A stretch of 41,829 bases of DNA, from the NCBI GenBank assembly GCA_949296375.1, contig CASFQX010000025.1:1-41829 (forward strand), in the 5' to 3' direction. A program made the position numbers and the translations under genes. The DNA comes from an uncultured Olsenella sp. GTDB lineage: Bacteria; Actinomycetota; Coriobacteriia; Coriobacteriales; Atopobiaceae. The notes under the pieces were generated by a model that was given only the letters and a program-made list of their open reading frames with translations, ran no database searches and was not told where the DNA came from. Shown here one piece after another: positions 12,450 through 34,606 of the stretch. Position 1 is the stretch's first letter. Each line of letters opens with the position of its first letter.

Positions 12450-12515
12450 CCCCGAGCGACACGCAGATAGTTCATACTGGCGAGAAGAACGGTGGTGCTC
12501 GGAAGGGGGTCTCAC

Positions 12516-13589
12516 ATGGACGAAGCGTCGAGGGGTGCGGACTGGGGCCAGAGCTGCGGCGACAACTGCTTCACGCTCGACGGTGACGGCTTCACCTGCA
12601 GCAGGGTGCTCGACGAGCCGGAGGTCTGGCGGGTCGAGCTGCTCATGCACGACACCTTCCTTCCGTCCGTAAACGCCTTCGTGGTGCGCGACGGCGGCGA
12701 GACGCTCGTCGTGGATGCCGGGACCTCGGATGACTTCAACGACACGCGCCTCATGCGGGCGCTGCTCGGCCTGGGCGTGGACCCCGAGCGCACCACGCTC
12801 TTCTGCACGCATGCCCACATGGACCACGCCGGCCTGGCGCGTGAGCTCTCCGAGGCGGGCGCCCGCGTGGTCATTTCCGAGGGGGTTCTCGGAGACATGC
12901 GCCTTCTTGCCGTGCCCGCTTGGCGTGACGAGATGGTTGCCCGCATGCGCGCGGAGGGCGTGGGCGAGGCGGAGTCCGTCGAGCTCGCGGACGTGATCTG
13001 GGACCATGCCGTCAACTTCGAGGCCGAGAAGATCGCGTTTGCGACAGTCTCATCCGGAGATGTGCTGCGCTGCGGGCGCTGGGAGCTCGGGGTCGTGCCC
13101 ACGCCGGGCCACACGCCGGGGCACTGCGCCCTTTGGGAACCGCACAGCCGCACGGCGTTTCTCGGCGACGCGGTGCTCTTCCTGTGCTCCACGTGCATCG
13201 GCTTCTGGCGCGAGGGCGAAGACCCCATCGGCAAGCAGATCGCCACATTGAGCAACCTTGCCGAGATGGGCGTCGAGCATGCGTTTATGGGGCACGGCCT
13301 GCAGGAGGGGGGCGTGTCCGAGCGCTGCAGCGCCAACATCGCACATCACGAGCGTCGTAGCGCCCGAGCCCTGGCGGCGATCCGCGAGACGCCCGGTAGC
13401 ACGGGCTACGAGCTCGTTCCGGCGATGGGGTGGCATGCGCCTTTCGACCGCTGGGCGGAGACGCCCGCGCTCACACGCTGGTTCCTCGTCTCCGAGAGCA
13501 TCGCGCACCTCGATCACCTCGTGGCGACGGGCGCCGTCCGCCGCGAGCCCGACGCCGCCGGCGTGCATCGCTACTTCGCTGCGGAGTAG
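12516..13589 (+). CDS. Metallo-beta-lactamase-fold hydrolase
   Basis: A 357-residue MBL-fold protein. The metal-binding motif HxHxDH is present as THAHMDHAG (H99, H101, D103, H104), and a second set of ligands is likely in [12 protein letters not shown] and FLGDAVLF. The C-terminal third, with [15 protein letters not shown], forms a helical extension like the one in the hydroxyacylglutathione-hydrolase-like 'MBL fold metallo-hydrolase' group. The substrate is unknown; thioesters, lactones and phosphodiesters are all possible. I chose ATG 12516 because GGAAGGGGG ends five bases upstream; the frame is open to 12492. It is divergent from mrp and followed by two large hairpins rather than by a gene, so it is probably monocistronic. 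Confidence 0.87.
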
Positions 13590-13598
13590 GCCTTCTGG

Positions 13599-13664
13599 GG
13601 GCCTTCCGGTGTTCCTTCAGGAAGTGCGCTGCGCGAAACTTCCTTCCGGAACACCGGAAGGCCC
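13599..13664 (+). repeat. 66-nt hairpin element, copy 1
   Basis: A 17-bp outer stem (13599-13615 with 13648-13664, perfect), a 3x3 internal loop, a 7-bp inner stem AGGAAGT/ACTTCCT and a 12-nt loop GCGCTGCGCGAA (13626-13637). It starts ten bases after the MBL gene stop and lacks a T run. The same architecture with different stem bases recurs at 13769-13834 in the opposite orientation. Confidence 0.85.
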
Positions 13665-13768
13665 AGGCAATTCCTCCTCCGCAGCGAGCGGCGACGACGG
13701 GGACGCTGGGCTCTCGGCGCCCGGCGCGCCACCTCGATGTCGCGGTTTACCTATAGGTTGGGGTTCGA

Positions 13769-13834
13769 TGGGCTGGGGGCATTCCGTAGGGAGGTTTCGC
13801 GCAGCGCACCTCCCGGAGGAATGCCCCCAGCCCA
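13769..13834 (-). repeat. 66-nt hairpin element, copy 2 (inverted)
   Basis: A 17-bp outer stem (13769-13785 with 13818-13834), a 3x3 internal loop, a 7-bp inner stem GGGAGGT/ACCTCCC and a 12-nt loop TTCGCGCAGCGC (13796-13807). The loop is the exact reverse complement of the copy 1 loop, so the element lies in the opposite orientation. Stem sequences differ from copy 1 but keep full pairing. It ends eight bases before the candidate uvrA -10 element and fills the -35 region. Confidence 0.85.
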
Positions 13835-13842
13835 CCACGGGC

Positions 13843-13848
13843 TACAAT
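13843..13848 (+). promoter_or_regulatory. Candidate uvrA -10 element
   Basis: TACAAT lies 40 bases before the uvrA ATG. The -35 position falls within the 66-nt hairpin copy 2 and does not look like TTGACA. No LexA box like the one before uvrB is seen here. Confidence 0.4.
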
Positions 13849-13887: not shown

Positions 13888-16773
<2,886 letters not shown>

Positions 16774-28888: not shown

Positions 28889-28910
28889 GGCTTTTGCGGC
28901 CGCAAAAGTC
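28889..28910. promoter_or_regulatory. Palindrome with NotI core, site 1
   Basis: CTTTTGCGGCCGCAAAAG at 28891-28908 is a perfect 18-bp palindrome, 20 bases after the hisF stop. The same core recurs at 28954-28975 with matching right flanks. It may be an operator for hisI-hisE or a dispersed repeat. Confidence 0.6.
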
Positions 28911-28953
28911 ACGTGAGTTTTCTGCTCAACTGGGCAAACGCATAGCGAACGTT

Positions 28954-28975
28954 GACTTTTGCGGCCGCAAAAGTC
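28954..28975. promoter_or_regulatory. Palindrome with NotI core, site 2
   Basis: A perfect 22-bp palindrome with the core TTTTGCGGCCGCAAAA flanked by GAC and GTC. It lies 65 bp after site 1 (centre to centre) and 26 bases before the chosen hisI start. It is the better match of the pair. Confidence 0.6.
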
Positions 28976-34399: not shown

Positions 34400-34606
34400 C
34401 GCTTGACGAAAGCAGGCTTGTCTCAGCTTCGGTGCGGCATCGCTTGACGGATCGAGGCTCGTCTTAGCTCTGCGTCGAAATAACTTGACGGATCGAGGCT
34501 CGTCTCAGCCCAAAGTGCGTCTAAGGCTGAGACGAGCCGTGCTTCGTCAAGCGATAAGAACCGTGGGCTGAGACGAGCCTCGATTCAACGAGCCCCCTGC
34601 TGTTGT
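34400..34606. repeat. Repeat array 2: five units, 41-bp period
   Basis: A 29-bp core begins at 34400, 34441 and 34482 (exactly 41 bp apart) with CTTGACG and GGCTCGTCTCAGC as the clearest parts. The inverted form starts at 34525 and 34566, also 41 bp apart, with GGCTGAGACGAGCC. About 12 variable bases separate the cores. Forward and inverted units can pair into long stems. The array fills the space between uvrC and the fruR control region; the CTTCTCG word lies at its left edge (34395). Confidence 0.88.

What the first reader, a model, noticed from the sequence alone, without database searches (positions are those of the whole stretch)
13599..13834. Two 66-nt hairpins with covarying stems and a conserved 12-nt loop
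Both elements have a 17-bp outer stem, a 3x3 internal loop, a 7-bp inner stem and a 12-nt loop. They lie in opposite orientation and the loops are exact reverse complements. The stems differ in sequence yet stay fully paired: outer arms contain CCTTCCGGTG in one and GGGGGC in the other, inner stems are AGGAAGT versus GGGAGGT. Keeping pairs while changing bases is the mark of selection on structure. Candidates are a structured RNA family, a protein-binding hairpin or a REP-like mobile element. The second copy overlaps the uvrA promoter region.
Basis: partly seen in the sequence, partly recalled or inferred. Interest (0 to 1): 0.7.

Follow-up and report, generated by a model that had tools for sequence, protein, structure and literature searches.

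The report
Capped gene-end hairpins in Thermophilibacter
The two hairpins belong to a previously uncatalogued family of a dozen or more hairpins per genome in the bacterial genus Thermophilibacter, sitting where transcription terminators sit just after genes, each with its own stem but all carrying the same conserved cap, which makes them a new, testable variety of bacterial gene-end signal.

Summary
Both 66-nt hairpins fold as described; the loop holds a further 3-bp stem. They are no local duplication: about 17 copies occur in this genome and copies in all 31 genomes held of the genus (Thermophilibacter, Atopobiaceae), few elsewhere in the order. They are not REP elements: no GTAG/CGTC tag, no copy beside the RAYT genes examined. 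Of 111 copies near one stop codon only, 108 lie in sense, median 24 nt after it, behind conserved genes (rplX, groEL, leuS, pnp). Orthologues without the cap carry ordinary terminators there, sometimes with the same stem. So the outer stem is a locus-specific terminator-type stem and the inner ~34 nt a conserved cap. Twenty of 22 close pairs face each other, the second copy usually just upstream of the next gene's putative promoter; at uvrA it replaces the SOS box. Stem pairs change on both sides 608 times against 26 one-sided, and the cap has flipped in place: marks of template switching, so covariation alone does not prove selection. The cap's T-N-C triplets read C-GNA-G on the opposite strand, hinting at DNA folding. 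Cap function is unproven.

The parts
13599..13664 (+). Hairpin 1 (copy in sense with the upstream gene): outer stem 13599-13615/13648-13664, internal loop 13616-13618/13645-13647, inner stem 13619-13625/13638-13644, apical loop 13626-13637
   Evidence: covariance model E = 7.9e-17 in its own genome (a model-building sequence)
13614..13649 (+). Conserved cap of hairpin 1 (core TTCC-TNC-RRGAAGT-GCGCTNCGCGRA-ACTTCYY-TNC-GGAA; approximate limits)
   Evidence: column conservation over 129 copies; sequence-only search
13769..13834 (-). Hairpin 2 (opposite orientation, just upstream of the putative uvrA -10 box)
13784..13819 (-). Conserved cap of hairpin 2 (approximate limits)
13843..13848 (+). Putative -10 box TACAAT of uvrA, 8 nt beyond hairpin 2
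   Evidence: sequence; position conserved in the orthologues that carry the hairpin
12492..13589 (+). Upstream gene, metallo-beta-lactamase-fold protein (longest frame; start uncertain); its stop codon lies 10 nt before hairpin 1
   Evidence: PF00753, E 3.3e-21
13888..16773 (+). uvrA
   Evidence: PF17760, PF17755; orthologues at 93-100% over the N-terminus in 30 of 31 genomes of the genus

Best explanation
The hairpins are members of a genus-wide family of gene-end (terminator-position) hairpins. The outer stem is the locus's own terminator-type stem; the inner ~34 nt is a conserved cap shared by all members. Shown by sequence: the position (about 19-29 nt after a stop codon), the sense orientation, replacement by ordinary terminator hairpins in orthologues that lack the cap, loss of the cap from an otherwise kept stem, and in-place inversion of the cap. 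Inferred: the hairpins end or shape transcripts in the sense direction (termination or 3'-end protection), and the cap is kept because something reads it, most likely a trans-acting factor that binds the folded cap and makes termination or 3'-end formation less dependent on a U-run. Facing pairs (-> <-) would insulate an intergenic region: the first stops RNA polymerase leaving gene A, the second stops leftward (divergent) transcription starting at the promoter of gene B. The near-perfect pairing is maintained at least partly by replication template switching between the arms, not by selection alone.
For: Copies in 31 of 31 genomes of the genus. Gene context of 148 copies: a stop codon 5-40 nt upstream in sense for 108, antisense only for 3, both for 5; sense distance median 24 nt, 5-95% range 11-29. 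Upstream genes are orthologous across species (15 rplX, 12 leuS, 9 groEL, 8 pnp and others). In orthologues without the cap the same place holds an ordinary terminator: rplX in G022 (..CCGGGCCTTTTTT), G008, G027; leuS in G010 (..GGCCGTTTTTTT) and G006; groEL in G005 and G025 with the stem GAGCCCCCGGTC/GACCGGGGGCTC, whose outer part is shared with capped relatives G026 and G003. G021 rplX keeps the stem of G004/G026 but has lost the cap. G022 and G027 have cap plus T-run at groEL. Sequence-only search for the core: many hits per genome against 2 in the reversed control over the genus, and 142 of 149 cores in hand have at least 11 of 16 arm pairs. Facing pairs 20 of 22, with the second copy usually 50-140 nt upstream of a start codon and next to a -10-like box.
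Against: No transcript or termination data. Capped hairpins have only a weak T-tract (T-run of 4 or more in 8 of 103, against 9 of 40 uncapped hairpins; mean T in the first 8 nt no different), so termination is not assured. If only the sense RNA fold mattered, G-U pairs should exceed A-C mismatches; they do not (26 versus 31). The conserved unpaired T-N-C triplets are not favourable in the sense strand but are in the opposite one. No binding factor was identified.
Confidence: 0.7

Rival explanations
1. A DNA-level element: the form selected is a folded DNA strand (cruciform, or the template-strand hairpin), read by a DNA-binding protein or acting as a topological or road-block element near transcribed genes, in the way BIME/REP elements have been proposed to act.
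For: All three conserved unpaired triplets (18-20, 32-34, 47-49) are T-N-C with a free middle base, i.e. 5'-C-GNA-G-3' on the other strand. GNA loops closed by G-C pairs make exceptionally stable DNA mini-hairpins (d(GCGAAGC), Tm 78 C; PMC4686876), and the apex GCTNCGC is the complement of GCGNAGC. At the internal loop, 0-0.3% of random versions are more stable on the opposite strand, against 44-54% on the sense strand. G-U and A-C are equally rare. One-sided changes 26, two-sided 608.
Against: The strong orientation relative to transcription (108 to 3) is not expected of a cruciform, which has both strands folded. The GNA fit applies to an antisense RNA as well as to DNA at the internal loop. 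The energy tables contain no GNA triloop term, so the apical argument rests on published chemistry. No evidence of extrusion in cells.
Confidence: 0.2
2. A REP-like mobile element (non-autonomous, moved by a RAYT/Y1 transposase).
For: Dispersed palindromes downstream of genes, often in inverted pairs, as described for REPs (PMC3733652); Y1/RAYT genes present in most congeners examined; an order-level relative (G190) has about 28 near-identical MITE-like copies with the same apex.
Against: No conserved tag at the hairpin foot; no copy beside the RAYT loci examined; own RAYT bounded by unrelated long terminal inverted repeats. In this genus the arms are locus-specific and whole hairpins are not copied between loci, except with gene duplications. 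Not found in viral contigs, phages or plasmids.
Confidence: 0.05
3. A mutational by-product: long palindromes kept perfect and spread over related loci by template switching and gene conversion, with no function of the cap.
For: Two-sided changes without intermediates, in-place inversion of the cap (groEL G024: arms 34/34 identical, cap 28/32 inverted versus 12/32 direct; leuS G015: cap 26/32 inverted versus 16/32 direct), chimeric arms (G010 uvrA hairpin 1, G005 glnQ), cap loss.
Against: Template switching explains pairing, not why the same cap sequence persists at non-orthologous loci in 31 species while the arms drift, nor the 108:3 orientation bias.
Confidence: 0.05

Closest known systems
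Rho-independent (intrinsic) transcription terminators
   Same: GC-rich hairpin about 20-30 nt after the stop codon, in sense; occupies the place of canonical terminators in orthologues
   Different: Long (17-bp) stem topped by a conserved ~34-nt cap shared by unrelated loci; usually no clear T-run
REP / BIME / REPIN elements with RAYT transposases
   Same: Palindromes downstream of genes, often in facing pairs, genus-restricted, with an internal mismatch loop
   Different: No GTAG/CGTC tag, not beside RAYT genes, locus-specific arms, fixed orientation relative to the gene, present at orthologous genes across species
Terminators built from DNA uptake sequences (Neisseriaceae DUS)
   Same: A conserved sequence module incorporated into terminator hairpins (PMC3630211)
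   Different: There the module is a short oligomer forming the arms and also occurs singly in great numbers; here it is a hairpin cap seen only inside hairpins, roughly 10-20 per genome
GNA-loop DNA mini-hairpins, d(GCGNAGC)
   Same: The strand opposite the sense strand carries GCGNAGC at the apex and GNA/GNA in the internal loop
   Different: Known as a chemical motif; no bacterial gene-end element built on it was found in the papers searched

Membership tests
Intrinsic transcription terminator | GC-rich stem-loop a short way 3' of a stop codon, in sense | tested here: met
   108 of 111 copies with a stop codon on one side only; median 24 nt
Intrinsic transcription terminator | Run of T directly after the stem | tested here: inconclusive
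   T-run of 4 or more in 8 of 103 capped hairpins; T enriched at +1, +4, +6, +7; clear runs in G022 and G027 groEL
Intrinsic transcription terminator | Orthologous loci use an ordinary terminator at the same place | tested here: met
   rplX G022/G008/G027, leuS G006/G010, groEL G005/G025
Intrinsic transcription terminator | Ends transcription | not testable with these tools
   needs Term-seq or in vitro transcription
REP / RAYT system | GTAG or CGTC tetranucleotide at one foot of the hairpin | tested here: not met
   no flank position above 0.5 bit over 89 distinct loci
REP / RAYT system | Copies flanking a RAYT gene | tested here: not met
   20 RAYT-region loci, none with a copy beside the RAYT; own RAYT has other terminal repeats
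REP / RAYT system | Near-identical copies dispersed in one genome | tested here: not met
   arms differ between loci in the copies examined; only gene-duplication copies share arms. Met in a distant relative, G190
Described structured RNA family (Rfam 15) | Covariance-model match at gathering score | tested here: not met
   (only sub-threshold miRNA-like chance matches)
DNA uptake sequence terminators | Conserved oligomer also occurring singly, far more often than in hairpins | tested here: not met
   0-19 core matches per genome; 142 of 149 cores in hand lie in arm-paired hairpins, the rest mostly chimeric or rearranged copies
BIME (facing REP pairs binding gyrase/IHF) | Facing inverted pairs | tested here: met
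   20 of 22 close pairs
BIME (facing REP pairs binding gyrase/IHF) | Binding by gyrase, IHF or Pol I | not testable with these tools
   needs binding assays

The most novel reading that the evidence does not exclude
The cap is selected as a folded DNA strand: a template-strand hairpin built from three C-GNA-G motifs, extruded at the ends of strongly expressed genes and upstream of some promoters, recognised by a dedicated factor, giving a strand-specific, DNA-structure-based termination and insulation system that at uvrA has taken the place of SOS control.
Probability: 0.15. Interest if true: 0.85.

Novelty: new variant of a known kind. Interest (0 to 1): 0.55.

Why it matters
Terminators normally share an architecture, not a sequence. 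A genus in which unrelated terminators carry the same conserved cap, in one orientation, implies a factor or mechanism that reads it. It also offers a clean natural data set on how perfect stems are maintained (template switching versus selection), with losses, chimeras and in-place flips of one module visible at named orthologous genes. The replacement of the uvrA SOS box by a member of the family is a directly testable change in DNA-repair regulation.

Tried and rejected
Local duplication: rejected. Rfam family: none. RAYT/REP: rejected for this genus. Phage or plasmid origin: no covariance-model hits in 22 viral contigs bearing the loop sequence, no hits in phage or plasmid records. Part of a longer repeat or MITE: flanks are not conserved across loci. 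The bare 12- to 16-nt loop as a search key is useless outside the genus: most hits are chance matches in unrelated phyla. The literature searches found no description in Olsenella or related bacteria; subscription papers were not searchable. A stem-based test of which strand is selected (G-U versus A-C) gave no difference.

Full report
Check of the observation. The two hairpins are at the stated places: 13599-13664 on the + strand and 13769-13834 on the - strand. Both fold as described; the region has z = -8.3 against shuffles and each hairpin z about -8 as DNA. The loops are identical on their own strands. The 12-nt loop contains a further 3-bp stem that also covaries in other copies.

Extent of the family. 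A covariance model built from the two copies and two more found by pattern search gives 28 hits at E <= 1, about 17-20 distinct places, in the window's own genome, and hits in every one of 30 congeners. A model from 122 copies searched over 395 genomes of the order again gives hits in all 31 of the genus and 1-4 in scattered genomes of other genera and of another family, with one exception, G190; per-genome counts are capped at 13 scored candidates. A sequence-only search for the core finds many hits per genome against 2 in the reversed control over 31 genomes. Of 149 cores in hand found by sequence alone, 142 have at least 11 of 16 arm positions paired (127 at least 15); the rest are mostly chimeric or rearranged copies. 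Most of the loci in hand were brought in by the structure model, so this check is not wholly independent, but the own-genome pattern search with 3 mismatches found five places, four with full arms and one degenerate.

Anatomy. Over 129 copies of 66 nt the core (about positions 14-53) is strongly conserved, positions 10-12 are partly conserved and the outer nine pairs are variable. Flanks carry no shared sequence, so the hairpin is the whole unit; several loci have an additional, locus-specific outer stem, e.g. GAGCCTGAGC..GCTCAGGCTC at rplX.

Position. With genes called by codon usage in a script, so starts are approximate, a stop codon lies 5-40 nt from the foot in sense for 108 copies, in antisense only for 3, and on both sides for 5; the sense distance has median 24 nt and a 5-95% range of 11-29. 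These counts include orthologous copies from related species, so they are not 108 independent events. Upstream genes are conserved ones: rplX in 15 copies, leuS 12, groEL 9, pnp 8, guaB, gpm, rpsJ, truB, two ABC transporters and others (some names are assigned from the sequence by knowledge). Of 22 close pairs 20 face each other (-> <-). The second member usually lies 50-140 nt upstream of a start codon on the other side, close to a -10-like box; at uvrA it ends 8 nt before TACAAT.

Terminator identity. Collecting the orthologous 3' regions of rplX, groEL and leuS from 29-30 congeners shows ordinary terminators at the same place where the cap is missing: rplX G022 GGCCCGG..CCGGGCCTTTTTT, G008 and G027; leuS G010 ..GGCCGTTTTTTT; groEL G005 and G025 with the stem GAGCCCCCGGTC..GACCGGGGGCTC, whose outer GAGCCCCCGG is shared with the capped G026 and G003. 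G021 rplX keeps GGAGGCCCCCGGTTCATC..GATGAACCGGGGGCCTCC but lacks the cap that G004 and G026 have inside the same stem. G022 and G027 at groEL have both cap and T-run. In the capped set the T-tract is weak; whether termination still occurs there is not shown.

How the pairing is kept. In 117 distinct rows, 608 cells show changes on both sides and 26 on one side; 98.1% of cells are paired. G-U (26) and A-C (31) are equally rare, whereas an RNA hairpin held only by selection on its sense strand should pass through and tolerate G-U. The cap has flipped in place at two loci: groEL G024 (34/34 arm bases identical to G017; cap matches 28/32 inverted, 12/32 direct) and leuS G015 (26/32 inverted, 16/32 direct). 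Arm homogenisation and spacer inversion are the published signatures of template switching between inverted-repeat arms (PMC8604942), which can create and maintain hairpins and give multi-base compensatory changes in one event (PMC8794818). Covariation in this family is thus not by itself proof of selection; the persistence of one cap sequence at unrelated genes and the orientation bias are the stronger arguments for function.

Which strand. The three conserved unpaired triplets are T-N-C with a free middle base; on the other strand each reads C-GNA-G. GNA loops closed by G-C pairs give exceptionally stable DNA mini-hairpins, GCGAAGC melting at 78 C (PMC4686876). Randomising the fixed positions of the internal loop almost never improves the opposite strand's fold (0% with RNA and 0.3% with DNA parameters) but improves the sense strand's in about half the cases. 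The energy tables do not score GNA triloops, so the apical part rests on literature. This points to the template strand or a cruciform, against the orientation bias, which points to transcription. Both could hold; it is unresolved.

Alternatives. REP/RAYT: Y1 genes are present in most congeners examined, but no hairpin lies next to them; the own RAYT has 48-nt terminal inverted repeats of unrelated sequence; no tag is present at the foot (definition from PMC3733652). Rfam: nothing. Phages, plasmids, viral contigs: nothing. DNA-uptake-sequence terminators are the nearest precedent for a shared sequence inside terminators (PMC3630211) but differ in copy number and architecture.

Verdict. A real, genus-wide family; ordinary in position (gene ends), unusual in carrying a shared, oriented, flippable cap of unknown reader. 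New variant of a known kind; interest 0.55.

Noticed in passing
window 13769-13848 and uvrA-upstream loci L220-L249: Among congeners, 12-13 species have the hairpin directly upstream of the uvrA -10 box and no SOS box, while those without the hairpin mostly have a LexA-type box (GAACACRYGTTGC or near) there; G005 has neither. The hairpin appears to have replaced SOS control of uvrA.
   Followed up: partly
L082 (G000:C8) 1772-2766: The genome's own RAYT (Y1_Tnp, 264 aa) is bounded by 48-nt inverted repeats CAAAAGGGGACAGGTACAC..., with a third partial copy, unrelated to the hairpins.
   Followed up: partly
L441-L460 (G190, order-level relative, about 47% G+C): About 28 nearly identical dispersed hairpins GGGTGGCATAGYCTTTTCACGGGAACTGCGCTTCGCGAAAGTTCCC... 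with the same apex but conserved flanks: a MITE-like repeat that may share an origin with the cap.
   Followed up: partly
L028 1672-1735 (G010, uvrA hairpin 1) and L474 1480 (G005, glnQ): Chimeric hairpins whose two arms derive from different alleles or from the two members of a facing pair, so that the outer stem is broken.
   Followed up: partly
L371 (G012 leuS 3' region), cores at G012:C1:46175, 46253, 46331: Tandem array of three cap-bearing units at 78-bp spacing after leuS.
   Followed up: no
L417/L429, L419/L427 (G168, G169; another family of the order): Facing pairs of very long perfect hairpins with a related apex GTGGGCTTCGCGAAC between two genes.
   Followed up: no
window 34442-34593 and 28891-28973: Other large inverted repeats in the window: a 69-nt, 72% complementary pair with nested 21-nt perfect arms, and two copies of the palindrome CTTTTGCGGCCGCAAAAG.
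   Followed up: no
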